From Muricea muricata (taxonomy: Eukaryota > Cnidaria > Anthozoa > Malacalcyonacea > Plexauridae): a stretch of 64,000 nt of DNA. Under the pieces are notes generated by a model that was given only the letters and a program-made list of their open reading frames with translations, searched no databases and had not been told where the DNA came from. Position 1 is the first letter of the stretch, and every line of letters starts with the position of its first letter. This document shows, one piece after another, positions 33,720 through 54,148 of this stretch. A program made the translations under genes and the position numbers. The DNA is taken from positions 42,777,559 to 42,841,558 of the forward strand of contig OY979718.1 in NCBI GenBank assembly GCA_963855995.1, in the 5' to 3' direction.

Positions 33720-33770
33720 TCTCCTCGCCCTGTGAGACTTGTACCTGCAGGGTGAAACAGTCTATTAAAC

Positions 33771-34806: not shown

Positions 34807-34810
34807 ATAT

Positions 34811-35075
34811 GAGTTTTGTGCACAGCAAATCGGAAGAGTGTACCAAGACGGAATTAAACTTATTTTCTGTCCCGCCGACGCAAGTAAGTTTGAAAAAAGG
34901 GCTGTGGATCAATCATCAGCCCGTGTCCAGTGTCTCAGACGGCGGACCAATTACATTCGTCTGCTCGGGCACCTAGGATTATGCGGACTTGTCAAAGACT
35001 GTTTTGGAGGTTCGCGCAAAAGTAACCAAAGCAAATGGAAACGATCGTGATCCAAATGCAAAAATGAGCATTGTG
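34811..35075 (+). pseudogene. Old Polinton F54H12.2-like capsid protein, 5' part
   Basis: The ATG at 34,811 begins a frame with MSFVHSKSEECTKTELNLF and LKKGLWINHQP, typical of the F54H12.2-like family. That family is taken to be the double-jelly-roll major capsid protein of many animal Polintons. A TAG lies at 34,974-34,976. The frame is cut at 35,075 by the 18.4-kb Polinton and resumes after it at 53,469 in the same phase once one target-duplication copy is discounted. The gene follows the pX-like frame directly, as in related elements. Confidence 0.8.
35070..35075. repeat. Left 6-bp target-site duplication ATTGTG
   Basis: ATTGTG directly precedes the AGTAGTATAG terminus and is repeated directly after the other terminus at 53,469-53,474. 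Six bases is the duplication length known for Polinton/Maverick integration. Confidence 0.95.
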
Positions 35076-35253
35076 AGTAGTATAGAAAGGCCGGTTCCAG
35101 CACATTTTAATTTTTTAACTGACCAACATCCAAAATTGTGACCGCGGACACAGGTAATTACCATTTTGGGGTTCCAGCACATTTTCGAATCCTCCTTCCC
35201 ATCCGCACAAAAAATTCGTTAAAAATTCTTTTGAAAACGTTTCTAAAGAATTT
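35076..35253. repeat. Left terminal inverted repeat
   Basis: About 178 bp matching the inverted right end. The first 111 bases differ at three sites, all transitions. A block of about 35 bases present in the right repeat is missing here, between two copies of CCATCCG. The unit GGTTCCAGCACATTTT occurs twice (35,093-35,108 and 35,170-35,185), 77 bases apart, and may be an integrase-binding site. The inner end contains TTTTGAAAACGTTTC, related to the recurrent motif inside the element. Confidence 0.9.
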
Positions 35254-35259
35254 TGAATT

Positions 35260-35643
35260 CTATTTCGACGCGTGTTCCTTATCAAGTTCGTTCCGATAAT
35301 AATCCCTATCGTATTCCGCTTGGTCTTTTTCCTTTTTTAACCTATCCTTTATTACACGTTCTTCTTCTCACGTTTCCTTTATAGTATCGATAAACACTTT
35401 GAGACTTTTTGATTTAGACTTACTTTTCATTTCTTCTATTTTTAATTTTTTGTAATATTCATCCCGTTCTTTCTCGGTCTTTGCCAACACCTTTACCAAC
35501 TTCCAATAGCTCCTGGACATAACATCTATACGGTCTGTTAAATCGATATAAATATCGGTCATTTCTTCTGCAAGGTCTAAATTGTAGACTTCGGCAATCT
35601 TATCGTTTAAATCTTTTAGAACGTCTTTAAGATCCGTTGTCAT
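35260..35643 (-). pseudogene. Small coiled-coil protein, broken by TGA
   Basis: ATG 35,643 opens a charged, helical protein (LKDVLKDLNDKIAEVYNLDL, later KTEKERDEYYKKLKIEEMKS) with heptad-like spacing. A TGA at 35,368-35,370 interrupts after 91 residues. The same frame then continues with similar Lys/Glu/Tyr-rich character for 35 residues to TAG at 35,260-35,262, next to the left terminal repeat. This suggests an original 127-codon gene. No family is recognised. It follows the polymerase end by 15 bases, with AATAAAG just before its start. Confidence 0.6.
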
Positions 35644-35658
35644 CTTTATTATTATTCT

Positions 35659-38600
35659 CTAAAATAACTTTTTTAAGTTTTCGATTTCTTTTTTTAAAGT
35701 TTTTTTGTTTTCGATTTTATAATGTCCTATTACCAACGTGTTGATTCCGTCTTCTAATATTATTCGTTTATCATCGTCGGCCGAGAGTGCAATCTTTGTA
35801 ATGGATTCCGTGTGGATATTATGTTTACGGCTTCTAATAGCATTCATTGTCCTTTGCTGGTCTTCTTTGGTGAACAGGCAGTTCTTGTAATCCTCGAGCG
35901 TTATTCCTTTTTTCACCACTCCTTTCTTTACACCTTTACATTTCTTCTCTTCTTTTCCACAATCCATTTTGTAAGCATACAATTTACTCCTTAATCCTAC
36001 GAACTCTGTAATTTGTTTTCCACCAGCCTCGTCTTTCATCATCCCAATAACTTTTTTGTTCATTCCTGTTGGGATTCCGCTCGGGTGATTCTTTTCATAA
36101 TTTGACGTATCGAACCATTCGGTAGCGTCGTCGGATATGTCTTTGTAGAAATCTTTCGTTTTGATTTCGTAGAACGAACCATCCGTATCCGTGGAGAGTA
36201 GACTTATTACCGTTATTACCGTACTTAGGTTTGATGAAATTATAATGGAAGTCATACATTAACGTCTTACTGAGATCTAGGATGCTCATACCTAGGTATA
36301 TTGGTTTATGTAACTTAATTGTTGTCTTTTTCATATGTACTGCCACCAAATCTTCTGTGAAAATATTAATCCTATCGAAGTTAGGTTTTTTAACTAATTT
36401 TTCGAGTTCTTTTTCGTCGGTAACGAGTCTTACGTCAATCCTGTTTCTGATGTTTTCCATAGTTTTCCCGAATACAGAATTATTCATCAATTTGAAAAAG
36501 TCCTTCTCAAACTCCGTGGTTCCTTTCGTTCTTAGGTTTGTGTTTAATTGAATATAATCTTTTAACCAGGCTTTTTCGTTAAATTTGACTCCTCTATGGA
36601 TTTTAATGAGTTTTAAACCTAAGTCTAGGTATTGTTTTAGACTTCTATGATGGAGTACATATTTTTCCTTGTTATTAAGATTAGGAATAAGTTTATCAAC
36701 TTTGTATACTCTGAGTCGTTCTGGGGCTAGCGGGTATTCGTTATGGGTGTCGTGTAAGTTTTCAGGGTATTCTATATCAATTTCTAATATACATCCTTTC
36801 CCATCACCTAAGTTATTCCAGTTTTGTAATTCCGATTCGCTCATCCATTTGAATCCGTTAACTGGGAGGGGTTGACTCATTGCCTACCCGTATAGGTTAT
36901 TGGCGTCGAGGTACATAATGTATTTTGTGACTTGTTCTGGGTTGAAGACCTCACCACTTTCCATTTTTTTTCTTAGGTTCTTAATTTCTTCTGCAGAGAA
37001 GTCAGGGAAATATTCGCAGACAGCTTCCACGGAGAATTGATGTTCTTCGTTTGTTATTTTTTTTAACTCCTTCATAATTTCAATCGGCGTTTTGTCCCTG
37101 ATTTTACCGACGTATGGGTTATTCGCCTTTGCATATCTTTTCATGATAGTACTGATTCCTCCTCGGATACCGTTTTCAACCAGGTCTGGGTCGGTTAGTA
37201 ATTCTAGTTCTATTTTTGATATTATCAAGGCTGCGTCCCACGCCAATCCGGGTGCTGTATAGTACCATAAGGGGTCTAATTTATAATTTTCTAGACATAC
37301 GTTTCTATAATTTTCCATTACGTCTGCTAACAATAAGACGTCTGTTTTCAAATACAAGTCGTGGTAATCCCGCATCGTTTTACAATCGAATTCCTTCCAA
37401 ACATTGTGAGCGTGTTTGTACTCTTCATTGCTTATATTGGTATCATTAAGTTTGTTGTAGAAGTGTTTTTTGGATGGGAGTTTGTTTACGTTTATCTTTT
37501 CAAAATCAGTCATGAAATCATATGGGAAAACTCCTTTTTTCTTCAATAGTTTGTTATTACCCATCTCCTTTAAATTTTCTAACGATTTGAATTGGTCGGG
37601 TCCTAATCCTTTTACGAGACCGTCTAGGGATTTTAAAGTGAATTTTATAGAGTCTAAAAATCTTATTTCTAAAGTTTCCGGTTTTAATTTTGTTTTTTCA
37701 CATTCTATTTCCTTATCGGTAAGGTTTAGAACCCGGTCTATTTCTTCATTGGTCCAATCAACCATTTCAGATATTTCTTCTCTTGACCAGTTTGATTCGC
37801 GTACGGCTTGTATTAGGCGCATTTCCTCATCGTTTTTTGTATTATCAATATTATTAATTTCAATATACTTACTGAACGAAATATACTTTTCGTCTGTTTT
37901 TGGAATGCAACTTACATCACCTCCGAGACTTTTTACGAATAGGTGAGAATCGTAACCTTCTAGATTGTGAAACAACACGGGCACGAATTTTGGGGTTCTC
38001 ATTCTAAGATTACATTTACTGTGTGCCGCCCCTCGATACTTACCAGTGAGATGACAATGATCTCTTACACGATCGTCTTTCAGATCTAATCCACATGCAT
38101 AACATTTGACTGCATTTTTAAAACTTTCCTCTTCTTGTTCAGAGATTTTGATTGGAACAACCGTTTTTAAGATTTTATGAACTTCTTTAAGATCTTTTTC
38201 TAATGATTTTACGAATTTTTTTCCTATATCTTCACCCTCTTCTTTTGCCGTATACAATACGGTTTTGTCTTCATAGATGGATTCATCCATGCATTTGATT
38301 ATATAACAGAACCCGCTTGGTGAATGTTTCTGATATTGAACGGTTGCTTTTCCGATTTTGTTATCGGTGGGTTCGACAAGGCACTCGAAGTCTGCGTATA
38401 CAGCGAAAGGGACTCTGTGTGTTTTTTGGAATTGTTTAAAGGAAGCGTGCTTGTTATACTCGTTAGGATATACATGGTGCTGATGGTCATGATTTTGACA
38501 AAGCTCTAAATGTTTTTCTAGGCTTTCTGATGATTTAATAAATGATTAAGACATCTAAGACATATAAATTTTTTGTGGTCTTGTTTGTTAACCTGGCTCG

Positions 38601-39534
38601 AAACAAGTCTGCTCAGGTTTTTAACGACCCCGTAATGTTCATTATAGAGGAAGAGGTTTATGGTCTCCTCGTGTTCCGTTTTACGAAGTCTTAACGTATA
38701 AACTTTTCCGGTTTCATTATCAAAACTGAATACGTTAACATTAACATTATTGTTCTTTTCAAATTTGTGAATGTCTTTTAATTTTGTGGGGAATTCTATA
38801 TCGTTCCAATTATATTTTTTAACCTGGGTTTTGAGGATTTTTGTAATACGATTAGGGTTACGTTCGGCAGGATTTAATGCCCTTGTGACGGCCCACTTAA
38901 AACACTGATCGTCATCGTTTTCAATATTGATAACAGCGTTCTTTTTCACGATTACTTTTGGGAACGGTTTATAACTTTTACCGTTTAATGGTTTGAATTT
39001 TGTAATAAATATTTCTAACATTTCTACGGATAGTAACCGCCATCCGCTCCCAAGCTTTTGGTATTTGGCAAGACTTTCTAACATTTTTTCCTTCATTGTC
39101 GGGTACTCGTTTTTGACATCTTCTTCGCTGATCATGCTATGTGTCTTGCTACTGAAATGGGCGATGGTGAGGGTATCTTTTCCGGTTTCCGAGTTTGTCC
39201 GACCCATTTTACACACCAATACGGTATGTACCTTTTTCCCAACGCTGTTGATGCTGATAATAAGTTTTTCAACAGCCGGCGTTGTGCTTTCGAGAAAGAC
39301 GAGCGGATCTTTAAATCCACCACCGGGAATCATCCACTTGCTCGTGTTTCTTCTGATTGCTTCGGAAATTTGGATTGGTCTTAAATTCTTACCCGATTTT
39401 TCAATTCTTTTAAGTTTGCTTCCGAGCTTCTTTTTTGCAATCCTGAACCTTTCTTTTCGTTCATATTCTTTTTTGATTTCTCGTCGGCGCTTTTTCTCTT
39501 CCCGTTTGCGCATATCCTCTTCCTTTTTGCCCAT
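35659..39534 (-). pseudogene. polB: Protein-primed DNA polymerase B, three breaks
   Basis: About 1,290 codons read in pieces on the minus strand. Domains in order: basic N-terminus; a DQCFKWAVTRALNP-containing segment; CLRCLNHL zinc-like site; exonuclease motif YADFECL (about 38,390); an endonuclease-VII-like zinc site CYACGLDL..DHCHLTGKYRG (about 38,080); FHNLEGYDSHLF; YLKTDVLLLAD; polymerase motif A DANNLYG (36,884-36,904); motif B region MNNSVFGKTMEN; motif C DTDG (about 36,180); and the MMKDEAGGKQITEFVGLR tail. Breaks: a frameshift near 38,518, an in-frame TAG at 36,881-36,883 directly after motif A, and a frameshift near 36,205-36,225 inside a GGTAATAAC direct repeat, just before motif C. 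Protein-primed family B enzymes replicate Polinton-type genomes. This copy should yield no full enzyme. Confidence 0.9.
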
Positions 39535-39537
39535 TTG

Positions 39538-39792
39538 CTAGAATTTACGCTGTTCCTTTCTGCGCACTTGTTCCATTGCTTTCTCTCGTTTTTCCCGTTC
39601 CTGTTGTTTTAATCGTTGAAGTCTTTCTCGTTCTTTCTGCTTGGTACGACGAACTTTTTCTTCTTCTCGCTGTTTTAACTGGCGGACTTTTTCTTCTTGT
39701 CGACGGATCTTTTCTTCTTGCTGACGGATCTTCTTATTTTGACCCTCAATTATTTTACGGAACTTCTCGTAAACGTTATTTGAAATACTCAT
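39538..39792 (-). CDS. Basic coiled-coil protein, in frame with the polymerase
   Basis: ATG 39,792 begins an 84-residue Lys/Arg/Glu/Gln-rich helix (EEKIRRQEEKVRQLKQREEE style). It ends at TAG 39,538-39,540. The next codon but one is the ATG of the polymerase frame, in the same phase, and the coiled-coil character continues after it. It may therefore be the true N-terminus of the polymerase cut by a stop, or a separate small gene. AATAAA lies 10-15 bases before the start. Confidence 0.55.
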   Translation of the reverse strand: MSISNNVYEKFRKIIEGQNKKIRQQEEKIRRQEEKVRQLKQREEEKVRRTKQKERERLQRLKQQEREKREKAMEQVRRKEQRKF

Positions 39793-40095
39793 ATTACCTA
39801 TTTATTTATAACGCAAAAAAATTTTATAACCCGATTGGATTATGAAATTTATAAGTATTTCAAATAACGTTTAGATAATATGAGTATAACCGAATGATCT
39901 TCTTCTTTATTAGTATATTTTTTGAAACGTTTTAATAGTTGATTTTTTGTAACTCGCCGGGAGTTACCAAAAAGAAAAAACGAATGAATGACCGTCAGGT
40001 AAGGAAACAGTTGATCTTCTTCTTTATTAGTATATTTTTTGAAACGTTTTAATAGTTCGATTTTTCATAACTCTCGCGAGTTACAAAAAAACTTT
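39793..40095. promoter_or_regulatory. Noncoding block with two tandem motif-hairpin units
   Basis: Two copies of a 70-base unit start at 39,896 and 40,013 (period 117). Each has TAGTATATTTTTTGAAACG, the GAAACGTTTTAATAGTT motif and then a hairpin: GTAACTC/GAGTTAC around GCCGG at 39,949-39,967, and TAACTCTCGCGAGTTA at 40,068-40,083. Just left, 39,852-39,875 is an inverted copy of the start of the coiled-coil gene (GTATTTCAAATAACGTTTA). The TATA-like run with a downstream hairpin could mark small plus-strand transcripts or 3' ends. Confidence 0.5.
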
Positions 40096-40494
40096 TTAAT
40101 CATAATCTTCAGGACACAGGTTTTCTGGGAGGTGTTTGTTTACTTTCCCAATCTTGTTGACGTTAAAACAGAGGTAACTGTTTCCATCGTCTCTTGTAAA
40201 TATGAATCTGGTTTCGAATTCCACTCTGATGTGTGTCAATCCGTTGTTTAGTAATTCTTTCTTTTGCTTTTCCGATAAGCATTTTGATTTTAGGTAAAGT
40301 GTCTTGTTTTCACCGTTTCCGTATAATGGACTTTTTGTGTTGTGTTTCTTTGCGAGTTGATCTATTTTTGTTTTTACTTCGTCGTCGTTCACTGACACGG
40401 GGATTGAATAACCGTCTCTTATGTTCTTTTCGACCCCCCATGAGATCGTATTCAAAAGTTCAAATTTAACATTTTCAATATCTTTAAAGTTCAT
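40096..40494 (-). CDS. Hypothetical Polinton protein, 132 aa
   Basis: Intact frame from ATG 40,494 to TAA at 40,096-40,098. The protein is soluble, acidic and basic residues are mixed, and there is no membrane segment. A KTLYLKSKCLSEKQKKELLN segment and a β-rich RVEFETRFIFTRDDGNSYLCF stretch suggest a small mixed fold. No family is recognised. Its start overlaps the stop of the 62-aa gene by 4 bases (ATGA), so the two are probably co-expressed. The GAAACGTTTTAATAGTT motif lies 17 bases upstream. Confidence 0.7.
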   Translation of the reverse strand: MNFKDIENVKFELLNTISWGVEKNIRDGYSIPVSVNDDEVKTKIDQLAKKHNTKSPLYGNGENKTLYLKSKCLSEKQKKELLNNGLTHIRVEFETRFIFTRDDGNSYLCFNVNKIGKVNKHLPENLCPEDYD

Positions 40495-40679
40495 TCTTTA
40501 TTGATATAATTTTGAAACGTTTTAATAGTTGGGTTTTCCCTCTTAAATATACCGAACGTCATATCCTTACAGGGTATCGCGGTAATCAGTCCGTGGTTAG
40601 CACGACATTTCTTTGCGTCCGGAATGTTAATCGGTCCACTTTCCAGGGTTGGTGTTGTTCCTAGGTATTCGTAATTCAT
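40491..40679 (-). CDS. Hypothetical Polinton protein, 62 aa
   Basis: ATG 40,679 to TGA 40,491-40,493. It has a PTLESGPINIPDAKK segment and two cysteines in CRANHGLITAIPC. No domain is recognised. Its last codons (IKTFQNYINKE) are written by the recurrent GAAACGTTTTAATAGTT element read in reverse, so coding and regulatory content overlap here. AATAAAAATC precedes its ATG. Confidence 0.55.
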   Translation of the reverse strand: MNYEYLGTTPTLESGPINIPDAKKCRANHGLITAIPCKDMTFGIFKRENPTIKTFQNYINKE

Positions 40680-40703
40680 GATTTTTATTTAATCACTTTC
40701 GAC

Positions 40704-41111
40704 TTAAATTAATTTATATACTCCCCATCCGCCGATCAACCCTGCCAGTCCGACCGCGACGTGTTGGTATTCTCTCATTTCGTCGGAAGGTTCGTAGAAA
40801 TCCGACTCGTGAGGTTCTCTTGTGAACGTTCTGTTTTCGAAGGTGATCTTTCTTAAATTGTCCAACGCTTTGTTCGTCTTGTTGATGTCTGCGTTTGCGT
40901 CGGATAATTGTTGACGTAATAATTGCATTTCATTCTTTTTTTCGATCTCATTTTCATACCATTTCTCCTTTGCTGCCGTTAATTTTTCCATAGCTAAATT
41001 ATGACGTTTCATTTCGTCTTCGTACCCGTTTTTGTCGAGGAATTTGAATAAGAATCCTGCTCCTGCGAATGCAAAGGCATTGAATACTCCTGCTGCTGCG
41101 GTACTTGCCAT
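40704..41111 (-). CDS. Polinton membrane/coiled-coil protein, 135 aa
   Basis: The N-terminal region is Ala/Phe/Gly-rich and hydrophobic (about residues 1-25, AAAGVFNAFAFAGAGFLFKF). A long coiled coil follows (about 35-90, MKRHNLAMEKLTAAKEKW..LLRQQLSDANADINK). A C-terminal Gly-rich hydrophobic stretch (HVAVGLAGLIGGWGVYKLI) ends the protein. The layout resembles small virion-associated proteins found next to minor-capsid genes in other Polintons; that is inference. The start lies 1 base after the stop of the 75-aa gene, with GAATAAATG as start context. Confidence 0.7.
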   Translation of the reverse strand: MASTAAAGVFNAFAFAGAGFLFKFLDKNGYEDEMKRHNLAMEKLTAAKEKWYENEIEKKNEMQLLRQQLSDANADINKTNKALDNLRKITFENRTFTREPHESDFYEPSDEMREYQHVAVGLAGLIGGWGVYKLI

Positions 41112-41339
41112 TTATTCTTTAGATACCTCTTTCGGAATGTACTCCTTGCCTTGAAGCGTCTTGACCAATAACGAACCCAATCCAACGGCGACGGCTAGTT
41201 TTGCTGTTCCGTTTACAGTTTCTGGAACTCCCAACGGTGTCTTTAAAAATTTCTTGCTTGCGTACGAGACTCCAACGGCACCAGCGGTAATTGCAGCTGC
41301 GGTGTACGCATCATTAATCATATCTTTTTGCGAAACCAT
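41112..41339 (-). CDS. Small hydrophobic protein, 75 aa
   Basis: Two hydrophobic Ala/Gly-rich helices: about residues 12-28 (TAAAITAGAVGVSYASK) and 46-62 (AKLAVAVGLGSLLVKTL). They are separated by a short loop (TPLGVPETVNG). A basic/acidic tail ends EVSKE. Probably a membrane or capsid-interior protein. It is followed without a gap by the 135-aa gene. ATAAATAAAGAGT precedes the ATG. No family is recognised. Confidence 0.65.
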   Translation of the reverse strand: MVSQKDMINDAYTAAAITAGAVGVSYASKKFLKTPLGVPETVNGTAKLAVAVGLGSLLVKTLQGKEYIPKEVSKE

Positions 41340-41363
41340 ACTTTACTCTTTATTTATATATAT

Positions 41364-41735
41364 TTAATTTTTAAAAGTGCGTAATCTACTAACGGTATTT
41401 TCCTGAACTTCGTTATTGTTTTGAGTTACGGGTTGTTGGACGACTTCTTTTTTACCGTTGTTTGTTGTTGTCGTGTAAATATAATAACCGAGACCGGCTG
41501 CTCCTGCAAGCAATAGGATTTTCGTTGTGTTGCTCATTTCTCCCTCGCTATTATTTTCACGGTCTTCGTGATGTTCAGGTTCTTTGAGTTCATCACCTGA
41601 TTCTTTTTTCTTCCTTACCATTTTATTAAATGCGGCAAGTTTTTTCCCAGCATCAACCCTTCTCGGGTCCTTTTCTGGTTTATCGACCGTTATTCGGTGC
41701 TGAGAATTATTTGATGTTGTGGATTCTTCGTTCAT
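41364..41735 (-). CDS. Single-pass membrane protein, 123 aa
   Basis: The N-terminal half is polar and charged, with RRVDAGKKLAAFNKMVRKKK, a stretch like ones I recall from other Polinton proteins. A membrane segment lies at about residues 72-88 (ILLLAGAAGLGYYIYT). The tail is Asn/Gln/Thr-rich. The gene is first of a three-gene run (123, 75, 135 aa) with spacers of 24 and 0 bases. CAAATAAATG is the start context. Confidence 0.7.
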   Translation of the reverse strand: MNEESTTSNNSQHRITVDKPEKDPRRVDAGKKLAAFNKMVRKKKESGDELKEPEHHEDRENNSEGEMSNTTKILLLAGAAGLGYYIYTTTTNNGKKEVVQQPVTQNNNEVQENTVSRLRTFKN

Positions 41736-41829
41736 TTATTTGTTAATGAGACAGATAAATGAAAATGGGGTGCTTACAAAGTACTGAAAGAAAATTATCA
41801 ACGAAGACGTTGATATAAAACGAAAATTT

Positions 41830-41979
41830 ATGGTAGGGATACATTTTTCAAAAGGCGCAGATGGTATGAAGGCTAACGTCCAAATCACACTCGGAACAAC
41901 TCGAAAAAAGAGATACGAAATTGTTTCGAACGTACAAACACCACCTATTGAAAAAACGTACAGGGTGATTTGGAAACCA
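41830..41979 (+). other. Short plus-strand frame between two minus-strand genes
   Basis: A frame beginning MVGIHFSKGADGMKANVQIT follows GATATAAAACG and runs about 50 codons before it enters the antisense of the GIY-YIG gene. It may be the remnant of a plus-strand gene or chance. It lacks the AATAAA start context seen at the other genes. Confidence 0.25.
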
Positions 41980-41980
41980 C

Positions 41981-44161: not shown

Positions 44162-44163
44162 CT

Positions 44164-45234: not shown

Positions 45235-45311
45235 TTATTTTAAGTAATATGAATGATGCAACATAAACAGAGGAAGGGGTGAATCGCCCCTCCCTCTTGA
45301 ATCGTTTGGAA

Positions 45312-45968: not shown

Positions 45969-45988
45969 TTATCTTTATAAAATAAAAA
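45969..45988. promoter_or_regulatory. 20-bp bidirectional spacer between two gene starts
   Basis: TTATCTTTATAAAATAAAAA is all that separates two divergent start codons. It contains TATAAA and AATAAA on the plus side and ATAAAGATAA on the minus side. There is no room for a conventional host core promoter. Confidence 0.6.
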
Positions 45989-47233
45989 ATGGAAGATCAA
46001 AACATTGAAATGAAGGACAGGGACCGCGAACGATATGAGGAGGAGCAACGAAGAGTTAACGAAGAAGAGGAAACTAGTTTTTTCGACGACAGGAGACCCG
46101 GTGATGAAAGCATTCTCATTATCGACGGTTCGAATCCGGTTTTTGCAAGAGTGGATGCCGATAGACCATCGACATCCGAAATCCCTAATGTGAGACGTGA
46201 TGTCGGTGTTATGAGAAGACATATCATTCACGACATGAAACAGTTTTTAAAAAAAGGACTTGGACTTACAATTAATAAAGGGGACGGACCAAATTCGACG
46301 ATAATATACGATAAGGTAAGATTTACGACCGACAAGGATGATAAGATTAACGGTGCCACGTACAAAGGTAAAAAAATCTTAATTTTAAGGGGTGGGAAAC
46401 TTATATACTCGACGGATAAAACGAAAGCACCGCTCGTTAACGAATTTAAGGAATTACTTAAAAGGGCAGACGCCGAACATCAAAAAACTCCAACCCCAAT
46501 AGCCGAAAAACGTGCCGGAGTCGATCTCCCGCAAGACGTCATGATTGACATTATTGGGGATGTGAACGATCAAATAGATTCCGAAATAGATAGGAGATTC
46601 GATGAAATATCGTCCAGCACGGAAATAACGGCTAACGAGTTAAGGGAATTAAGGGGTACGTTATACGCAAGAGAGGGAGGCGAAGAAAGAATTAAAGCCT
46701 TGGGTATTGAAATGGAACATTGGAAAAAGGAGTCGGATAAGGCAAAAGCCGAAGGGAAAAATAACAAAGCCTTACTTTACGATGCAATGAGAAAAGCTGC
46801 AGAATTAAAAGCCGATGAAATAAGATTAAAACTTAATCAAAAACCCGTGAGCGAGGAAGTTCTAAGTATGATAGAAGAAGAAACTGATGTCAACGATTTG
46901 ACCAGACTTGAAAGGTTTAAAAAATGGGCTAGGGAAAACATCGTTGGTGTGTCTGCAATCTCAATATCCATAGCAGGAATAGTTACCACGGCCTTCATGG
47001 GTGCAAGGAGCGTTGTAAAGAAAGGTGGAAAAGCCTTAGGTAAATTCGCTAAGGGTGTATCAAAAGTATTTAAAAAACTCGGTCCGTTATTTTCCGCATT
47101 AGGAACGCTCTTATCAAAAATGATTTTGGCAGGCAGTCAGGGACTTTTGTGGTTGTCTCAAAATTTATGGGTTTTGTTCCTAATAATAGCATCCATCGTT
47201 TACAACGAATATAGAAGAAAAAGAAGAAGATAA
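45989..47233 (+). CDS. Polinton protein with C-terminal membrane region, 414 aa
   Basis: The N-terminal 35 residues are highly charged (Glu/Arg). The middle is soluble, with an FTTDKDDKINGATYKGKKIL strand-rich part and a long helical part (about 205-300). The C-terminus has a hydrophobic helix (about 317-340, VGVSAISISIAGIVTTAF), a basic amphipathic stretch (VKKGGKALGKFAKGVSKVFK), a second hydrophobic helix (QNLWVLFLIIASIVY) and ends in KRRR. The tail resembles membrane-active tails I recall in other Polinton proteins. A role at the virion or host membrane is inference. TAA is embedded in TAAATAAATG, the start of the next gene. Confidence 0.7.
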   Translation: MEDQNIEMKDRDRERYEEEQRRVNEEEETSFFDDRRPGDESILIIDGSNPVFARVDADRPSTSEIPNVRRDVGVMRRHIIHDMKQFLKKGLGLTINKGDGPNSTIIYDKVRFTTDKDDKINGATYKGKKILILRGGKLIYSTDKTKAPLVNEFKELLKRADAEHQKTPTPIAEKRAGVDLPQDVMIDIIGDVNDQIDSEIDRRFDEISSSTEITANELRELRGTLYAREGGEERIKALGIEMEHWKKESDKAKAEGKNNKALLYDAMRKAAELKADEIRLKLNQKPVSEEVLSMIEEETDVNDLTRLERFKKWARENIVGVSAISISIAGIVTTAFMGARSVVKKGGKALGKFAKGVSKVFKKLGPLFSALGTLLSKMILAGSQGLLWLSQNLWVLFLIIASIVYNEYRRKRRR

Positions 47234-47237
47234 ATAA

Positions 47238-47570
47238 ATGGATATTGTTAAAATTTTTTCCGTTCAATACGATGCGTTTTTAAACGAACTCGTACGATTA
47301 TTCCCATACAAAATAGAAATACGACTTTTAACCTCTTACGTTGCCACGTTCACACACGAATACTTACTGGAAGAAGGATCAAAACTTTTGAACGACCAGG
47401 TGGAATCATCCATTTCAAACAGGGATGTTGAAGGACTCGTTTACCTAGTTCCAGACAATCACAAATCAACCGCCCGATCGCTCGTAAACGAACTAACCGA
47501 CAAGAATTTAAAAATCTTGTGGGGCTGGGCCCATCTTTTCATAAAAATATTTAAAAAATATAATATATAA
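47238..47570 (+). CDS. Hypothetical Polinton protein, 110 aa
   Basis: The frame is intact, 4 bases after the previous stop. The protein is helical and soluble, with a YDAFLNELVRLFPYKIEIRL start and a C-terminal LKILWGWAHLFIKIFKKY amphipathic helix. No family is recognised. It is placed directly before the major capsid gene, so a packaging or assembly helper is possible, but nothing in the sequence proves this. Confidence 0.7.
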   Translation: MDIVKIFSVQYDAFLNELVRLFPYKIEIRLLTSYVATFTHEYLLEEGSKLLNDQVESSISNRDVEGLVYLVPDNHKSTARSLVNELTDKNLKILWGWAHLFIKIFKKYNI

Positions 47571-47583
47571 ATAAAGAAACAGT

Positions 47584-48831
47584 ATGCTTACAGGAAAAAA
47601 GCTAGAAAACAGAATGGAAAGTCTCGATACAGAATTCTCAAGATACAAGGATGCAAAGATTATGGGAAAAAGACTTTTTACAGAAGTAACGTTCAATCCA
47701 AGCGTTATCAACCCTGGGGAATCTGTTTACATTTCAATCCCAACCCTCGGAGCGAATATGTGCCTAGTCCCAGACACCTTTTTCCTAACCGCAAAGTTTA
47801 AAAGCAAGAACACGAAATCCTGGTTCCTGAATAATCTTGGAAGACTTTTGGTGAAACAGTTACAAGTTATGGTTGGGAGCGGAGAAGCTTGCTACACGAA
47901 CGATCAGGAAAGCTTGTATTCCGTATACAAAGATCTGTGGTTGCCAGTCGACCAAAGAAACAATATGGTAGACGTGGGTATCATGAACGAAAACAACAGA
48001 AAACTAATATCAGAAGATGATAGCGCCGATAAATCCGTTGTTGCTGACAAAACCGTTGTCGACGTCTTCGATGGTCGGGTAAGAATTAAACTCGGAAAAA
48101 TCCTAAACGATCACGGGTTATACGCACCTCTTGATGCCGGTAACATTATTAAATACAAGTTAATTTTCCCAAAAGCAGACGAAATTATGGTTGCACAAAG
48201 CAGCCAAAAAGTTGCAGGGTACACGTTAGAAGACGTCAGGTTAGAATACTCGTCGGTAGAAAATCCCGACGTGTACAACAAAGCCTTGAATAGCTTTCAG
48301 AGTCGAACGCTCGTCTTCGAAGACGTGACTTTCATCGATGAAGAAAGCTGGGGAAAGGACACAACGATCATCAACAAAACAATCAATTTACCGTGCTCGT
48401 CGATGAAACACATCGTAATGCTTTTCAGAAAGAAAACGCTTACGGATAGCGAAGAATACGTTTACCCAAAAATCAAGAGAGTGGATGTTACCATCGAGGG
48501 TAACCCAAACTCCGTTTACAGTCAAGGACTAGTCAAATCAAAATTATTCGAGGAAGCAAGAAAAGTTTTCCTAAACTACGAAACAGATACCCTTACCCTA
48601 ACCCTAACCGACTTCTTCGCAAATGACAAGTTCGCCCTAGTTATCGACTTGCGGGCTTACCCGGATAACGACGTTTCCGGTGACGGAAGAAAGATCCTGA
48701 ACACCCAAAATGGCATCACGCTCGGTATCAAAAAGGATAGAACATCAGAAGACATCGTGTGTAATACTTTTGTTGTGTCTGACAGGTATCTAAACTTCGT
48801 CAATATGATGTTCCGAAATCTCGAAATATAA
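47584..48831 (+). CDS. Major capsid protein, double-jelly-roll-like, 415 aa
   Basis: The frame is intact and β-rich throughout. Features typical of Polinton hexon-like proteins are an early VINPGESVYISIPTLG, KQLQVMVGSGEACYTNDQESLYSVYKDLW, a GLYAPLDAGNIIKYKLIFP strand pair and a VTIEGNPNSVYSQGL segment in the second half. The length is below the usual 500-600 for this family. It differs clearly from the F54H12.2-like capsid of the older element, so two capsid lineages are present in this window. Its position before the ATPase fits capsid-packaging gene order. Confidence 0.75.
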   Translation: MLTGKKLENRMESLDTEFSRYKDAKIMGKRLFTEVTFNPSVINPGESVYISIPTLGANMCLVPDTFFLTAKFKSKNTKSWFLNNLGRLLVKQLQVMVGSGEACYTNDQESLYSVYKDLWLPVDQRNNMVDVGIMNENNRKLISEDDSADKSVVADKTVVDVFDGRVRIKLGKILNDHGLYAPLDAGNIIKYKLIFPKADEIMVAQSSQKVAGYTLEDVRLEYSSVENPDVYNKALNSFQSRTLVFEDVTFIDEESWGKDTTIINKTINLPCSSMKHIVMLFRKKTLTDSEEYVYPKIKRVDVTIEGNPNSVYSQGLVKSKLFEEARKVFLNYETDTLTLTLTDFFANDKFALVIDLRAYPDNDVSGDGRKILNTQNGITLGIKKDRTSEDIVCNTFVVSDRYLNFVNMMFRNLEI

Positions 48832-48839
48832 ATAAATAA

Positions 48840-49441
48840 ATGAAATTTGAAACGCCATTAAATATGATTATCGTCGGAGTGACGGGTTGTGGGAAAACTT
48901 ACTACCTTCTTAAAATGTTAGAAAACGATTACAAAGACCATTTTGAATACATTTTTCTAATTTGTTCAACGTATTTGTGGAACAAAACGTACCAGGAATG
49001 GAAATATAAAGACGATAAAAAATTTTTCCAATCCCCTGCGATCAAGACGAGGTAGAAAATTTTCTAAAATTCGTTACGCACTGTTACAAAGACACGAACA
49101 GTTTAATCATTCTCGACGATTGTGCAAGCAGTCAATACGTAAAAAACAGATCGAGCGAAATCGTAAGACTTGCCTTTTCGGCTAGACATTACGGATTCAG
49201 TACAATTATCATTACCCAACAATTAACATCGATCACAAAACCGTACAGAACCAACACACAGATCCTGATCACGTTCTACAACCCTGATAAGAACGATATG
49301 AAAACGTTATTAGAAGAGTCCGTCGATGGTACCGAAGAAGAATATCGTGAGATCAAAGATAATCTTAAGAAGAACGAGTATTCCACGCTCGAAGTGTACC
49401 GTCGCCCTCCCTGGGGACATAGAATCGTATACTCATCATAA
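48840..49441 (+). pseudogene. FtsK/HerA-type packaging ATPase with one frameshift
   Basis: The first frame has the Walker A site IIVGVTGCGKTYYLLKML. A one-base frameshift lies near 49,025-49,035, within an A/T homopolymer. The second frame has the Walker B site NSLIILDDCASSQ, then LAFSARHYGFSTIIITQQ (sensor-like Gln) and ends HRIVYSS with TAA at 49,439-49,441. About 200 residues is normal for Polinton ATPases, which pump DNA into capsids. The start context is AAATAAATAAATG. The frameshift should abolish function unless it is a sequencing error. Confidence 0.85.
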
Positions 49442-49447
49442 TAATAA

Positions 49448-49927
49448 ATGAGCTCTGAAAATATTAATCTCCCAGACGTAAACTTTGAAATCCCCGAAGA
49501 AACTTCTGGTGATGACGGCTTACGCGAGAAACTTATTTCGTTAGCCGAAAAAGGAAAAATAAACTACTCGCCAAAATATATACAAAAAGCAAACCGAGAT
49601 GCTTTGGAAAAAATTAAAATAAAATACGATAGAAAAATTACCGAAAAGTCATCCAAAATGGTTTTGAACTTACTCGTTTCCAAACTCTCGGACATACTGG
49701 AAAAAACCACCCTAATCGAAAGTTAGGATGTATTGAAACAGAAATTAGATGAAAACGAATTGTTTAAAGAAGAATTCACCGAATTGATAAACGATGAATT
49801 AATGCCTTACATTCCTAAAATCGGATTGGTAAGCGGCGGTGTAACCGTTGTCGAAGAAATAATAAAAAAACGTATGGGAAAACAAGGCGAAATGAGGGAA
49901 CCTCCTGACGTCGATCTGGACTCCTAA
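49448..49927 (+). pseudogene. Small acidic helical protein with in-frame TAG
   Basis: ATG 49,448 opens an acidic, helix-rich frame (INLPDVNFEIPEETSGDDGL, then KSSKMVLNLLVSKLSDILE). A TAG at 49,724-49,726 interrupts. The same frame continues with the same character to TAA at 49,925-49,927 (LKQKLDENELFKEEFTEL, then MGKQGEMREPPDVDLDS). There is no methionine start for the second part except TTG, so one 159-codon gene with a stop is the likelier reading. Function unknown. Confidence 0.6.
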
Positions 49928-49938
49928 ATTGTTTTTTT

Positions 49939-49958
49939 CATATACGATTACGTATATG
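49939..49958. terminator. Hairpin between convergent genes
   Basis: CATATACG-ATTA-CGTATATG, a perfect 8-bp stem, is flanked by a T-run on the left and an A-run on the right. It lies exactly between a rightward and a leftward gene end and is a plausible shared 3'-end signal. Confidence 0.5.
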
Positions 49959-49965
49959 GAAAAAT

Positions 49966-50145
49966 TTAAAGTCCCGGGTAAAGTGGCGGTGCGGTTGGTT
50001 GTTGGTTTTGAAAATATTCTCTCACCGTCTTCTTCTTTGCAAGTTCTGACTCGACACCTTTTAATTCACCCTTCCCAGCTTTAGTTTTCTTTTTACCTTC
50101 TTTAACCTTCTTTAACGATTTAATCGTTCCCTTACCTCCATCCAT
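49966..50145 (-). CDS. Small basic protein with PPxY motif, 59 aa
   Basis: ATG at 50,143-50,145, TAA at 49,966-49,968. The N-terminal 40 residues are Lys/Gly-rich (SLKKVKEGKKKTKAGKGEL). The C-terminus is YFQNQQPTAPPLYPGL, which carries PPLY, a match to the PPxY late-domain motif that recruits WW-domain proteins in many viruses. It follows the 66-aa gene by 3 bases. The short length makes chance occurrence of the motif possible. Confidence 0.5.
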   Translation of the reverse strand: MDGGKGTIKSLKKVKEGKKKTKAGKGELKGVESELAKKKTVREYFQNQQPTAPPLYPGL

Positions 50146-50148
50146 TCC

Positions 50149-50349
50149 TTACCTCCATCCTCCTATGGCGGAAGGGAATACTATGGCCACCGCTACACCA
50201 CCACCAATAAAAATTAATTTCAATAACGTTTTCCCAACCAACTTTAATTTCTTTCTTCTAGTATTTCCTTTCATTTTCGATAACTCCGTCGTTAATTCTT
50301 CTTTTAATTCCGTAAGTTCCTCTTCCGTGAAATTAATAATTTGATCCAT
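50149..50349 (-). CDS. Small membrane protein, 66 aa
   Basis: A soluble acidic N-terminal helix (about 1-30) leads to a basic patch (RRKKLKLVGKTLLK) and one hydrophobic stretch (LIFIGGGVAVAIVFPSAIGG). It forms a two-gene leftward unit with the 59-aa gene. Its start faces the 44-aa gene across 20 bp. No family is recognised. Confidence 0.6.
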   Translation of the reverse strand: MDQIINFTEEELTELKEELTTELSKMKGNTRRKKLKLVGKTLLKLIFIGGGVAVAIVFPSAIGGWR

Positions 50350-50369
50350 GTCTTATTTATTATAATAAA
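50350..50369. promoter_or_regulatory. Second 20-bp bidirectional spacer
   Basis: GTCTTATTTATTATAATAAA separates two divergent start codons, the same length as the spacer at 45,969-45,988. AATAAA is present on both strands. Confidence 0.55.
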
Positions 50370-50504
50370 ATGATGATAGAAAATATATTTGAATTCGGGG
50401 TTTGTGTACTTATTAGCTCTCTTATCGTTTACGGAAAGGATATAATGGAATGGTTCTCAAAACCTCGTGAAACACCAGATATTGACTTGGATAATATTAA
50501 ATAA
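50370..50504 (+). CDS. Small membrane protein, 44 aa
   Basis: ATG 50,370 to TAA 50,502-50,504. A hydrophobic helix lies at about residues 8-20 ([14 protein letters not shown]), then a short polar tail ends DIDLDNIK. Stop and next start are linked by AAATAAATAAG. It is too short for family assignment, but it follows the spacing and start-context rules of its neighbours. Confidence 0.5.
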
Positions 50505-50509
50505 ATAAG

Positions 50510-50755
50510 ATGATACATATTCTAGGATACGGAATCGGACTATACATTTTAAAAAATATTTTAACAACCAATGAACCACCCGGTCCACAAGGCCCGCCTG
50601 GATTACAAGGGCCACCTGGATTACAAAGACCGCCTGGATCAAGACGACTCGTCAATTGTAAAGAACTTAGTAAAACGATATTGAACAAGGAGGAACAAAA
50701 AAGCGGAAGCGTCCTGGAAAACATAATGGCAAAAAGGCCTACAAATAAACAATGA
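50510..50755 (+). CDS. Membrane-anchored collagen-like protein, 81 aa
   Basis: An N-terminal hydrophobic segment ([15 protein letters not shown]) is followed by a short collagen-like run ([20 protein letters not shown], about residues 23-43). A charged tail with one cysteine follows. The stop overlaps the fibre start (ATGA). A companion of the fibre, perhaps its base or anchor, is a plausible role by position and shared collagen motif; it is inference. Confidence 0.65.
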
Positions 50756-52167
50756 GTTTAAACTTCGGTTACTCACCACCAGGTTTGGGGAGAATTAAAA
50801 AAGATATCAAAATGAACGGTCATAAAATCTTAGACCTTCCATCACCAACGTCGGATTCGGAACCCATTACGAAAAGTTATGCGGACACACATTATTCTAG
50901 TGGTGGCGGTTCTTCGAAAGGTCCGAAAGGGAGCCCAGGACCACAAGGACCTCGTGGTTTGAAAGGAAGTCCAGGACCACAAGGACCTCGTGGTTTGAAA
51001 GGAAGTCCTGGTCGTGGTGGATCACAAGGAAGCCCAGGACCGCAAGGACCTCGTGGTTTGAAAGAAAGTCCAGGATCACAAGGACCTCGTGGTTTGAAAG
51101 GAAGTCTTGGTCGTTATGGTTCACAAGGAAGTCCAGGACCACAAGGATCTCGTGGTTTGAAAGGCAGCCCTGGGCCACGCGGTCCCGCTGGCAGCGGTGG
51201 ATTATCAGACGCAGGTTTTACAATACAAGGGGATATTAATATGAACAACAACAAAATTACAAACCTTCCAGACCCAACATTAGCAAACGATCCCATTACA
51301 AAACAATACGCTAACCGAGTATACTTGACCGACAGCGGGTTTACGATGCAAGACAACATAGGTATGAACAACCACGAAATATTAGGTTTAAACCCGGTTC
51401 CATCCGGCGATACGTCAGCCGTGTCCAAAAGTTATACCGACACGGCGTATATTAAAAAAGACACCAATATTGATATGAACGGCCACCGTATTACCGGTTT
51501 GCCTATCATCCCTTTAACATCTAGCGAACCGATCACGAAAGGTTTTGTCGAAAGGTATTATTCAGATTATACGAACATTATGACGTTTAAAGGGAAGCCT
51601 GGTAGCGTTACAATTCTTAGGCAAGACAATATGGTCGACTCGCCTGAGAACGGACGTGCTACGAAAACGTTAGACTTTTCAAAAGTAGGCAGCAGTTATC
51701 AAATAAATTTTTCCGTCCAACCAAAACTCCCAAACGGTGTTTACACGTACGAGATGGATGTTGTTTTAACGACTTCTAGAGGATACGATGTAATGTTGAG
51801 GGGCGATTGTGGTGGTTCTGGGTACAATGCGTCAACGAAATATAAGTATTGGAGTTGGAGTTATGAGAATAAGATTGCTCATAACGATGTACAGGGTGGG
51901 ATATTCCATAGAGGTACTGGTAAAAGGGCACGTATTCAAGGGTCGTTTTTGAATCGGGGTACGCGTATTTACGGACAAGAAATTTCGCTTTCGTTAGATT
52001 ATGAAAATGGGAAAACGTACGAATTTGTTCTGCAGGATTTGGTGTCAAGAAGTACCGACCACGTTCTTGGTAACTCTATCTATTTTGTATTCCAACCTGA
52101 TAATAACCATACGATGGACTTTACGGACGAAACGTATTTTTCGTTTAAACGGTTATTGAAACTCTAG
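50752..52167 (+). CDS. Collagen-like fibre protein, 471 aa
   Basis: Residues 19-48 hold a first unit of the pattern I-x-MNxxxIxxLPxP...PITKxYxDxxY. Residues 57-147 are a collagen-like Gly-x-y region with repeats of [13 protein letters not shown]. Three more MN..I..L..P units follow (161-191, 202-233, 239-270). They resemble trimerisation repeats of bacteriophage tail fibres. Residues 275-471 form a β-rich C-terminal domain ([40 protein letters not shown]), a likely knob. An attachment fibre is the natural reading. The frame is intact. Confidence 0.75.
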
Positions 52168-52187
52168 GTTCATTAAAAAAAGTTTTT

Positions 52188-52219
52188 GATTCGTAACGAA
52201 AAAAAAAACGTTACGAATC
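52188..52219. terminator. Hairpin after the fibre gene
   Basis: GATTCGTAACG and CGTTACGAATC form an 11-bp perfect stem around an A-run of ten. It lies 21 bases after the fibre stop codon. A 3'-end signal is likely. Confidence 0.55.
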
Positions 52220-52233
52220 CCACCCTATTTTAT

Positions 52234-52281
52234 TATATACTTTTTGAAACGTTTTAATAGTTGATTTTCATATAATAAAGA
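52234..52281 (+). promoter_or_regulatory. Promoter region of the zinc-ribbon gene
   Basis: TATATAC at 52,234, then TTTGAAACGTTTTAATAGTT at 52,243-52,262, then ATAATAAAGA before ATG 52,282. The same TATA-plus-motif layout occurs at 39,915, 40,033, 40,505 and 42,468. It is therefore a recurrent element of this Polinton, probably a promoter. Confidence 0.55.
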
Positions 52282-53253
52282 ATGAATATTGACCCAAGAC
52301 AATTTATTAATTGTAGTCATACCCGTAAAGAAAAATACGGAATTTTCCATCGCTGTGCGGATTGTAAATACCACTTTTGTTATGATGAGACAAAATATTC
52401 TCACCCGGACCAATACAAAGACTGTGAACATCCCGTAAAGGGTGACATCTTCGGAGACCTCACTTGTCTCCGATGCGGGCTTCGATTCACTTCAGTCCTC
52501 AGTACGTGCAAGCATCGCCGTAAAAAGAGATTCTTTGACTACTCGGATTTTTATTGTTGTGCTGATTGTGGTTACCACTTCGTCGACGGCGACCCAAAAC
52601 TCAGACATCCTGGCCAATACGAAAATTGTGAACACACAGATCAAAGGATGGTTGATAACCAACTCTTATGCTTACGTTGTGGACTCAGATTTACAGGACC
52701 ACCTCCCATACCATTTGAAGAAGAGGAAAAAACCAAGTGTAAACATACCCGTTTAGAAAATATGTGTCGGACCGTATTTTGCACAAATTGTGGTTTAGTT
52801 GATGAATACATACCTTATGATGAAACGTGTAAACACCCTCATCTCACAGAAAAGAACGATAACACATTATGTTCAAATTGTGGTTTATTCGAAGAATACG
52901 AGTCGATAGACGAACTCTGTTTAGACCTTGGTTACCACGCGAGAATACAAGAAAACAAAACCAACCTAAACGAACACTCGAAAGTTAAGGACCTGAGAGA
53001 AGCCGCAAAAAAGGCCGGTGTTAAACGCGTTACCGTAATGTCTAAAAAACAACTTTGTAAAGTTCTAGGGATAAAAAATTCAAATGAAGGAAAGTACATT
53101 CTCAAAAACCTAAAAACAGGTAAAGAGCATAGACTCAAAAACCGAAAAGAAATCTCAGACAAGTTTGGTATTTGTCAAGGGTCACTATCGTTCCTTTTGA
53201 AAAAAGGAAAAGCTACCGTAAACGGAAACACGTACTCGCTGGAAAAACTTTAG
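52282..53253 (+). CDS. Six-zinc-ribbon protein with SAP-like and NUMOD1-like ends, 323 aa
   Basis: Residues about 10-215 hold six tandem units of Cx(H)...CxxC(G/K), for example NCSHTRKEKYGIFHRCADC, DCEHPVKGDIFGDLTCLRCG, TCKHRRKKRFF..YCCADCG, NCEHTDQRMVDNQLLCLRCG, KCKHTRLENM..FCTNCGL and TCKHPHLTEK..LCSNCGL. Residues about 235-262 resemble a SAP/Rho-N-like helix pair (DLREAAKKAGVKRVTVMSKK). The last 55 residues (LKNLKTGKEHRLKNRKEISD..GKATVNGNTYS) resemble a NUMOD1 DNA-binding module. A sequence-specific DNA-binding or transcription factor is likely. The TAG stop abuts the right terminal repeat. Confidence 0.75.
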   Translation: MNIDPRQFINCSHTRKEKYGIFHRCADCKYHFCYDETKYSHPDQYKDCEHPVKGDIFGDLTCLRCGLRFTSVLSTCKHRRKKRFFDYSDFYCCADCGYHFVDGDPKLRHPGQYENCEHTDQRMVDNQLLCLRCGLRFTGPPPIPFEEEEKTKCKHTRLENMCRTVFCTNCGLVDEYIPYDETCKHPHLTEKNDNTLCSNCGLFEEYESIDELCLDLGYHARIQENKTNLNEHSKVKDLREAAKKAGVKRVTVMSKKQLCKVLGIKNSNEGKYILKNLKTGKEHRLKNRKEISDKFGICQGSLSFLLKKGKATVNGNTYSLEKL

Positions 53254-53255
53254 GG

Positions 53256-53468
53256 AAATTCTTTTGAAACGTTTTCAAAAGAATTTTTAACGAATTTTTT
53301 GTACGGATGGAAGGGGGAGAAAAGGGGAGGAGGGGCGACGGATGGGGAAGAGGATTTGAAAATGTGCTGGAACCTCAAAATGGTAATTACCTGTGCCCGC
53401 GGTCACAATTTTGGATGCTGGTCAGTTAAAAAATTAAAATGTGCTGGAACCGGCCTTTCTATACTACT
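53256..53468. repeat. Right terminal inverted repeat
   Basis: About 213 bp, matching the left repeat in reverse. It includes an extra pyrimidine/purine-rich block of about 35 bases (53,318-53,352) flanked by CGGATGG copies. It begins next to the stop codon of the zinc-ribbon gene with AAATTCTTTTGAAACGTTTT, which repeats the core of the internal motif. Confidence 0.9.
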
Positions 53469-53474
53469 ATTGTG
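53469..53474. repeat. Right 6-bp target-site duplication ATTGTG
   Basis: Identical to 35,070-35,075. Confidence 0.95.
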
Positions 53475-54104: not shown

Positions 54105-54125
54105 AATAATAATAATAATAATAAT
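54105..54125. repeat. (AAT)n microsatellite
   Basis: About seven ATA/AAT triplets. Confidence 0.8.
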
Positions 54126-54148
54126 TACTGGAAATAATATATGCTAGT

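What the first reader, a model, noticed from the sequence alone, without database searches (positions are those of the whole stretch)
35070..53474. A complete-ended Polinton inserted inside the capsid gene of an older, different Polinton
Both termini and a perfect ATTGTG duplication are visible. The F54H12.2-like capsid frame stops at 35,075 and continues at 53,475 in the same phase. The older element has F54H12.2-type capsid, pX-like and RING genes; the younger has a divergent capsid, fibre and zinc-ribbon genes. Nested Polintons of two lineages at one site allow relative dating and raise the question of whether Polintons favour related elements as targets.
Basis: partly seen in the sequence, partly recalled or inferred. 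Interest (0 to 1): 0.85.

Follow-up and report, generated by a model that had tools for sequence, protein, structure and literature searches.

The report
Polinton nested inside another Polinton's capsid
A virus-like mobile element (a Polinton) jumped into the shell-protein gene of an older, already decaying Polinton of another lineage in an animal genome, probably a soft coral's; the nest looks real, but the genome is crowded with such elements, the reverse nesting also occurs, and nothing found so far shows that they seek each other out.

Summary
An 18,393-bp element (35076-53468) with terminal inverted repeats and an exact 6-bp duplication (ATTGTG) lies in phase in the major-capsid (MCP) gene of another Polinton. 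Uninterrupted paralogues show the empty site: the two flanks overlap by 2 residues (6 bp) in 5 of 6. Both capsid families model as double-jelly-roll MCPs. The older (F54H12.2-like, "F") element is a remnant: integrase, pX-like, part of the MCP and a RING ORF, with a DIRS-like retroelement among them. The younger ("Y") element has clean ends but a broken polymerase and a stop in its integrase.

The wider reading is only partly right. The host genome (453 Mb) has 247 listed capsid loci of the two families. The reverse nest exists too: an F element, TSD CTGCAG, inside a Y element, with F copies 99-100% identical. So "older" and "younger" apply to this site, not to the lineages. No significant excess of close pairs at nesting scale (6 seen, 4.0 expected, C1+C2); none of 13 other Y insertions checked sits directly in a recognisable Polinton gene. 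Verdict: a well-anchored nested insertion of an ordinary kind.

The parts
35070..35075 (.). left copy of target-site duplication ATTGTG
   Evidence: read directly
53469..53474 (.). right copy of target-site duplication ATTGTG
   Evidence: read directly
35076..53468 (.). younger (Y-type) Polinton, 18,393 bp
   Evidence: TIRs and TSD; related TIR pairs elsewhere in own genome
35076..35253 (+). left terminal inverted repeat, begins AGTAGTATAG
53256..53468 (-). right terminal inverted repeat, with a 35-bp insertion not seen in the left one or in either end of E2 and E3
35659..39537 (-). family-B DNA polymerase of the younger element, broken over overlapping frames (35659-36258, 36095-36883, 36884-38545, 38518-39537)
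   Evidence: ORFs; 15 of the 120 listed homologues of the 36884-38542 part carry PF03175; the pieces themselves do not hit PF03175, best Pfam match is Endonuclease_7 below cutoff
41981..42502 (-). 173-aa ORF with a C2H2 zinc finger, below cutoff (GIY-YIG-like look recalled only)
42665..44167 (-). 500-aa protein of unknown kind, with a relative in another Polinton next to E2
44164..45234 (-). integrase, rve-like, one frame with a stop at 44950-44952 (ORFs 44950-45234 and 44164-44949)
   Evidence: rve E=0.0021 below cutoff; 40% identical over 359 aa to the F integrase, which itself hits rve 5.9e-13
45312..45968 (-). 218-aa ORF; size and place fit a minor capsid protein (inference, not tested)
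   Evidence: no Pfam match
45986..47233 (+). 415-aa ORF; the homologous gene is the target of the F insertion in copy E11
47575..48831 (+). major capsid protein of the younger element (double jelly roll by model), open frame
   Evidence: model pLDDT 85.7; Foldseek to iridovirus, PBCV-1 and mavirus capsids, E 7e-15 to 1e-9
49019..49441 (+). packaging-type ATPase, partial open frame of 140 aa
   Evidence: Pox_A32 2.4e-5, above cutoff
50749..52167 (+). fibre-like protein with collagen repeats
   Evidence: PF01391 1e-12
52279..53253 (+). zinc-ribbon protein
   Evidence: PF08271 6e-4, below cutoff
30539..31197 (+). older (F-type) Polinton remnant: integrase fragments in several frames
   Evidence: rve 7.4e-6, below cutoff; tblastx and tblastn to the F element
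31721..33780 (-). DIRS-like retroelement (reverse transcriptase/RNase H-like and tyrosine recombinase) within the older remnant, where the F element has a 264-aa gene (minor capsid suspected)
   Evidence: PF00589 2.3e-6; synteny; RT/RNase H reading by eye, no Pfam support
34809..35075 (+). older element: MCP gene, N-terminal piece (one stop)
53469..53980 (+). older element: MCP gene continued in the same phase (two stops, then a frame change); homology ends here
54125..54505 (+). older element: RING ORF; its relatives often lie near F capsid genes
   Evidence: zf-RING_2 8e-6, just below cutoff; co-location

Best explanation
A Y-type Polinton integrated as one linear 18.4-kb DNA into the MCP gene of a resident F54H12.2-type (F) Polinton copy. 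The mechanism is the one usually assumed for Polintons: the element's own rve-type integrase joins the two AGT... ends to staggered cuts 6 bp apart, and host repair fills the gaps, giving the ATTGTG duplication. Shown: ends, TIRs, duplication, phase, empty site in paralogues, double-jelly-roll capsids on both sides, many further copies with 6-bp duplications. Inferred: that the element's own integrase acted, and that the site was hit because the genome is full of Polintons, not by targeting. The order at this site is F first, Y second, but F elements are the recently moving ones elsewhere, so the two lineages overlapped in time.
For: Exact ATTGTG at both ends and 130-nt TIRs. Side-by-side alignment of the two MCP pieces to uninterrupted paralogues. 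TIR pairs of the same family elsewhere, 14 of 14 resolved independent insertions with an exact 6-bp duplication. Both MCPs model as double jelly rolls (the F model is of modest confidence, pLDDT 61). Reverse nest at C1:75574768-75591545 inside copy E11, TSD CTGCAG, with F copies 99-100% identical over 1,534 bp against at most 96% between this Y element and its nearest listed copy over about 1.8 kb. Close capsid pairs under 25 kb on C1 and C2: 6 seen, 4.0 expected, reached in 448 of 2000 random placements.
Against: No read data were available, so assembly error cannot be excluded directly. Clustering grows with distance (35 kb: 10 pairs against 5.7, 123 of 2000; 50 kb: 14 against 8.1, 64 of 2000; 100 kb: 26 against 15.8, 11 of 2000), so insertion or survival is not uniform. 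Close pairs are mostly of mixed lineage (7 of 8 under 25 kb, P 0.027; 12 of 15 under 45 kb without the duplicated region, P 0.012; thresholds chosen after seeing the list, and the two proven nests are among the pairs). The Y integrase match to Pfam rve is below its cutoff.
Confidence: 0.94

Rival explanations
1. Assembly artefact: two Polinton loci were joined in the assembly.
For: Repeats of this size are prone to misassembly; no reads could be checked.
Against: A misjoin would not produce an exact 6-bp duplication, complete TIR ends on both sides and a phase-true split of one gene; the duplication equals the 6-bp overlap seen in paralogues, and other copies show the same anatomy with mostly other 6-bp sequences.
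Confidence: 0.03
2. Polintons actively target related Polintons, through integrase tethering (the F integrase carries a chromodomain) or a shared sequence.
For: Two nests of opposite polarity; 7 of 8 close capsid pairs are of mixed lineage; F integrase has a C-terminal chromodomain, E=1.6e-12; clustering at 100 kb; E2 lies at second level inside another Polinton.
Against: No significant excess of pairs at nesting scale; none of 13 other independent Y insertions lies directly in a recognisable Polinton gene; 14 target duplications without an evident consensus, though ATTGTG occurs twice; Polintons fill about 1-2% of the genome if each is taken as 17.5 kb, so a few nests are expected.
Confidence: 0.06
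3. Regional retention: Polintons pile up in gene-poor or low-recombination chromatin where other transposons also pile up, which raises nesting without any recognition.
For: C1 has 27% of the genome but 145 of 247 capsid loci; clustering at 50-100 kb, not significant at 15-25 kb; DIRS-like elements share two of these places.
Against: Gene density and recombination were not measured; it is not exclusive of the best explanation.
Confidence: 0.5

Closest known systems
Polinton/Maverick elements
   Same: TIRs with AGT ends, 6-bp target duplications, size within the 12.7-24.6 kb reported for intact vertebrate Mavericks (PMC8097293, passages); double-jelly-roll MCP (PMC4028283, passages); rve-type integrase and family-B polymerase (PMC11071308, passages); ATPase.
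   Different: A pair of two divergent lineages in one animal genome, one inserted in the other; both copies at this site are decayed.
Ngaro/DIRS retrotransposons in endogenous virophages of Cafeteria (PMC8547959, passages)
   Same: Nested mobile elements in virus-like integrants; one virophage there lies inside an Ngaro, as copy E2 here lies in a DIRS-like ORF.
   Different: There the nested partner is a retrotransposon, and some types prefer virophages; here a Polinton lies in a Polinton and no preference was shown.
Retrotransposon insertions in polinton-like viruses of cryptophytes (PMC12220804, passages)
   Same: Insertion of one mobile element into genes of a virus-like element.
   Different: Retrotransposons, not Polintons, and in protists.

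Membership tests
Polinton/Maverick (younger element) | terminal inverted repeats beginning AGT | tested here: met
Polinton/Maverick (younger element) | 6-bp target-site duplication | tested here: met
   ATTGTG; 14 of 14 resolved independent family insertions
[quoted passage not shown]
Polinton/Maverick (younger element) | protein-primed family-B polymerase | tested here: met
   15 of 120 listed homologues carry PF03175; the query itself did not hit PF03175; the gene is broken here; protein priming itself not testable
Polinton/Maverick (younger element) | rve-type integrase | tested here: met
   rve below cutoff; 40% identity over 359 aa to the F integrase, which hits rve at 5.9e-13; one in-frame stop
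Polinton/Maverick (younger element) | packaging ATPase | tested here: met
   Pox_A32 above cutoff, partial frame
Polinton/Maverick (younger element) | adenovirus-type cysteine protease | tested here: inconclusive
   no match among the ORFs scanned; not every ORF was scanned
Polinton/Maverick (younger element) | minor (single jelly roll) capsid protein | not tested
   45312-45968 suspected by size and place only
Polinton/Maverick, F54H12.2-type (older remnant) | double-jelly-roll MCP of the F54H12.2-like family | tested here: met
   (fold modelled on a paralogue, not on the remnant); name from database records of Dendronephthya, Xenia and Paramuricea
Polinton/Maverick, F54H12.2-type (older remnant) | integrase in syntenic place | tested here: met
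Polinton/Maverick, F54H12.2-type (older remnant) | terminal inverted repeats | tested here: inconclusive
   no pair framing the remnant among the 25 longest of 34 inverted repeats shown
Polinton/Maverick, F54H12.2-type (older remnant) | polymerase, ATPase, protease | tested here: not met
   ORFs of 80 aa or more from one F element, these genes among them, find no trace of them in the window at E 1e-3; read as deletion, so this is a remnant and not a whole member

The most novel reading that the evidence does not exclude
Polintons of the two lineages insert into each other but rarely into their own kind, which would point to a self-avoidance (target-immunity-like) rule combined with attraction to foreign Polinton chromatin.
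Probability: 0.06. Interest if true: 0.75.

Novelty: new member of a known kind. Interest (0 to 1): 0.4.

Why it matters
It is a well-anchored case of one Polinton lineage inserted in another, with paralogues that serve as the empty site and a second nest of opposite polarity in the same genome. It indicates that two divergent Polinton lineages moved in overlapping times in one animal genome, and that this genome, with 247 capsid loci listed here, is a place where target choice, self-avoidance and regional retention of Polintons can be measured. It also warns that left-right TIR divergence is not a safe clock for every Polinton family.

Tried and rejected
Dating by TIR divergence: rejected for the F family, where three copies have identical TIRs at one end (152 bp) while their opposite ends differ from it by 6-7%. 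For the Y family, within-element identity (E1 95.0%, E2 96.2%, E3 97.8%) is of the same size as between E1 and E2 (95.6% left, 95.1% right).

RING ORF as a foreign gene: at first it looked unrelated, since the F element of E11 does not match it; given up. Of its 149 other matches, 112 are not near one of the 115 F loci used, so RING genes of this kind also occur elsewhere. The 115 F loci are the closer ones of the 150 listed; the 35 most distant were left out of that count.

Four Y copies at C1:78.06-78.71 Mb as four insertions: rejected; they share the duplication CTAGAT and adjoining bases and show the same flank matches to the window, so they count once as segmental duplicates.

E11 as an insertion of F into the Y capsid gene: rejected. 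F sits in the neighbouring gene, homologous to window 45986-47233; the capsid split is a separate, unidentified 3.8-kb insert.

Pattern scans of viral contigs (IMG/VR) found no relative of either capsid query. Profile comparison of the two capsid families gave no significant match, though both models find the same double-jelly-roll structures. Copies not resolved: E14 (two right ends only), E18 (outer ends not identified), C1:32098730 (one end).

Library searches with Polinton or Maverick terms showed no title or abstract start about one Polinton inside another, in the 8 to 25 papers listed of each; 'F54H12.2' is in no held paper. The library lacks most subscription journals, and two likely papers were not held. 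Of the papers cited I saw passages only.
Full report
The claim. I checked ends, duplication, phase, identity of both sides, and the wider suggestion that Polintons may favour related elements.

Ends and duplication. The inverted-repeat search gives arms 35076-35205 and 53339-53468 (130 nt, 95%) and a continuation at 35194-35253 / 53256-53315 (93%). ATTGTG stands at 35070-35075 and 53469-53474. The element is 18,393 bp and begins AGTAGTATAG. In the window's own genome (453,007,491 bp, 74 contigs; window at C3:42777559-42841558) the left TIR finds 48 matches, many of them pairs facing each other. I resolved both ends of 14 independent insertions, this one included, and all 14 have an exact 6-bp duplication: ATTGTG, ATCAGC, TAAATA, TTTACA, CTAGAT, GATGTG, ATTGTG, TACAAG, GCACAA, AAAGTT, GAAAGT, TAAATT, AAATAC, AAAATG. 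Four copies at C1:78.06-78.71 Mb share CTAGAT and flank matches and are counted once. E14, E18 and one single-ended copy were not resolved. There is no evident target consensus; ATTGTG occurs twice.

The empty site. In the F-type Polinton that I found inside copy E11 (below), window 34274-35049 aligns to C1:75587298-75586537 and window 53468-53970 to C1:75586517-75586014, next to each other. At protein level, the piece ending with the left ATTGTG and the piece beginning with the right ATTGTG, aligned separately, overlap by exactly two residues in 5 of 6 uninterrupted paralogues and by one in the sixth, whose residue differs there. That is what a 6-bp duplication predicts. The capsid frame is in one phase across the insertion, but it is not open: one stop lies on the left and two on the right, followed by a frame change.

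What the two elements are. The younger (Y) element carries a 418-aa protein whose model (pLDDT 85.7) matches capsids of Singapore grouper iridovirus, PBCV-1 and mavirus: a double-jelly-roll MCP. It also has a collagen-repeat protein, a zinc-ribbon protein (below cutoff), a partial ATPase, an rve-type integrase with one in-frame stop (weak by Pfam; 40% identical to the F integrase) and a polymerase spread over overlapping frames, 15 of whose 120 listed homologues carry PF03175, though its own pieces do not hit that model. The older element is F54H12.2-like: a paralogue's 446-aa protein finds database records named F54H12.2-like in Dendronephthya, Xenia and Paramuricea, and its model, though modest (pLDDT 61), finds the same double-jelly-roll capsids. 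Those names, and Paramuricea among the Y capsid relatives, make an octocoral host likely; this is inference. Profile comparison of the two capsid families gave no significant match.

State of the older element. Its remains are integrase fragments (30539-31197), a pX-like gene (34274-34806), the MCP to about 53980, and a RING ORF (54125-54505). ORFs of 80 aa or more from one F element, its polymerase, ATPase and protease-like ORF among them, find no trace of those genes in the window. A retroelement with a tyrosine recombinase (PF00589 2.3e-6) and, by eye, reverse transcriptase and RNase H (31721-33780) stands where the F element has a 264-aa gene. The RING ORF has no counterpart in the F element of E11, but of 149 other matches listed in the genome 37 lie within 15 kb of one of 115 F capsid loci, and on C1 23 of 72 do, against 1.2 expected and at most 6 in 2000 random placements. 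So the RING ORF most likely belongs to the F-type Polinton, and in this copy the stretch between capsid and RING has been lost.

The reverse nest. Copy E11 (C1:75.565-75.599 Mb, Y type, TSD ATTGTG) contains an F-type Polinton at C1:75574768-75591545 with ends of about 145 nt (93%) and the duplication CTGCAG, inside the gene homologous to window 45986-47233. Over 1,534 bp it is 99-100% identical to two other F copies, while the window's Y element is at most 96% identical to its nearest listed copy over about 1.8 kb. F is thus the lineage with the more recent copies, although it is the older partner in the window. E11 carries, besides, an unidentified 3.8-kb insert in its own capsid gene.

Do Polintons favour Polintons? 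Searches give 104 matches to the Y capsid (336 candidates, 100 scored) and 155 to the F capsid piece (207 candidates, 150 scored), down to about 40% identity. I used 97 and 150 of them, leaving out seven split pieces of the first and taking the 150 shown of the second. On C1 and C2, without the duplicated region C1:77.9-79.0 Mb (174 loci), neighbours closer than 25 kb number 6 against 4.0 expected (448 of 2000 placements reach that), closer than 35 kb 10 against 5.7 (123 of 2000), and closer than 100 kb 26 against 15.8 (11 of 2000): regional clustering, no significant excess at nesting scale. Of 13 other independent Y insertions, 7 with about 6 kb of flank and 6 with about 1.1 kb, none lies directly in a gene recognisable with the proteins of the two elements. 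E2 lies in a DIRS-like ORF (read by eye) that stands between integrase and polymerase genes of another Polinton. Of 8 pairs under 25 kb in the whole list, 7 are of mixed lineage (chance 0.48 each, P 0.027; 6 of 7 and P 0.050 without the window), and 12 of 15 under 45 kb (P 0.012). The two proven nests are among these pairs, and the thresholds were chosen after seeing the list, so I treat this as a lead only.

Known parallels. Intact vertebrate Mavericks have TIRs, 6-bp duplications and sizes of 12.7-24.6 kb (PMC8097293, passages). Polinton PY is the double-jelly-roll capsid (PMC4028283, passages). DIRS-order retroelements interrupt about a quarter of the virophage elements of Cafeteria, and one virophage lies inside such an element (PMC8547959, passages). 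Retroelements interrupt polinton-like viruses of cryptophytes (PMC12220804, passages). The listings of the library searches showed no paper on one Polinton inside another, but I saw only the first 8 to 25 of each and the library is partial.

Judgement. The nest is real as far as an assembly can show. It is a new, cleanly documented member of a known kind, nested insertion. The interest lies in the reciprocal nests and in the genome as a test bed, not in a demonstrated targeting.

Noticed in passing
own genome, contig C1 (124.2 of 453.0 Mb): C1 is 27% of the assembly but holds 145 of 247 listed Polinton capsid loci.
   Followed up: partly
C1:78.06-78.71 Mb: Four Y copies with the same duplication CTAGAT and the same flank matches: a segmental-duplication array.
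   Followed up: partly
C1:75574768-75591545, C1:8309398-8326180, C1:77484046-77500832: F-type elements with identical ends on one side and 6-7% different ends on the other: TIR divergence seems inherited here, not a clock.
   Followed up: partly
C1:75592617-75596378: Unidentified 3.8-kb insert splitting the capsid gene of Y copy E11.
   Followed up: no
window 31721-33780; C1:75496731-75498276 and C1:75514924-75517466: DIRS-like elements associated with Polintons twice: one inside the older remnant, one holding Y copy E2; compare Ngaro in Cafeteria virophages.
   Followed up: partly
window 1253-2875, 28744-30368, 61431-63024: Long fold-back inverted repeats, 77-97% complementary, probably non-autonomous DNA elements (the nature is a guess).
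   Followed up: no
C1:92.2-93.0 Mb: Many F-type TIR matches close together; no pairs or elements were checked.
   Followed up: no
C1:43892890-43927935 and C1:113.859-113.904 Mb (E18): F-type TIR pair 35 kb apart and Y-type pair about 44.5 kb apart, longer than usual: candidates for further nested inserts.
   Followed up: no
window 5392-5868: ORF with leucine-rich repeats, LRR_8 1.1e-13, possibly a host gene.
   Followed up: no
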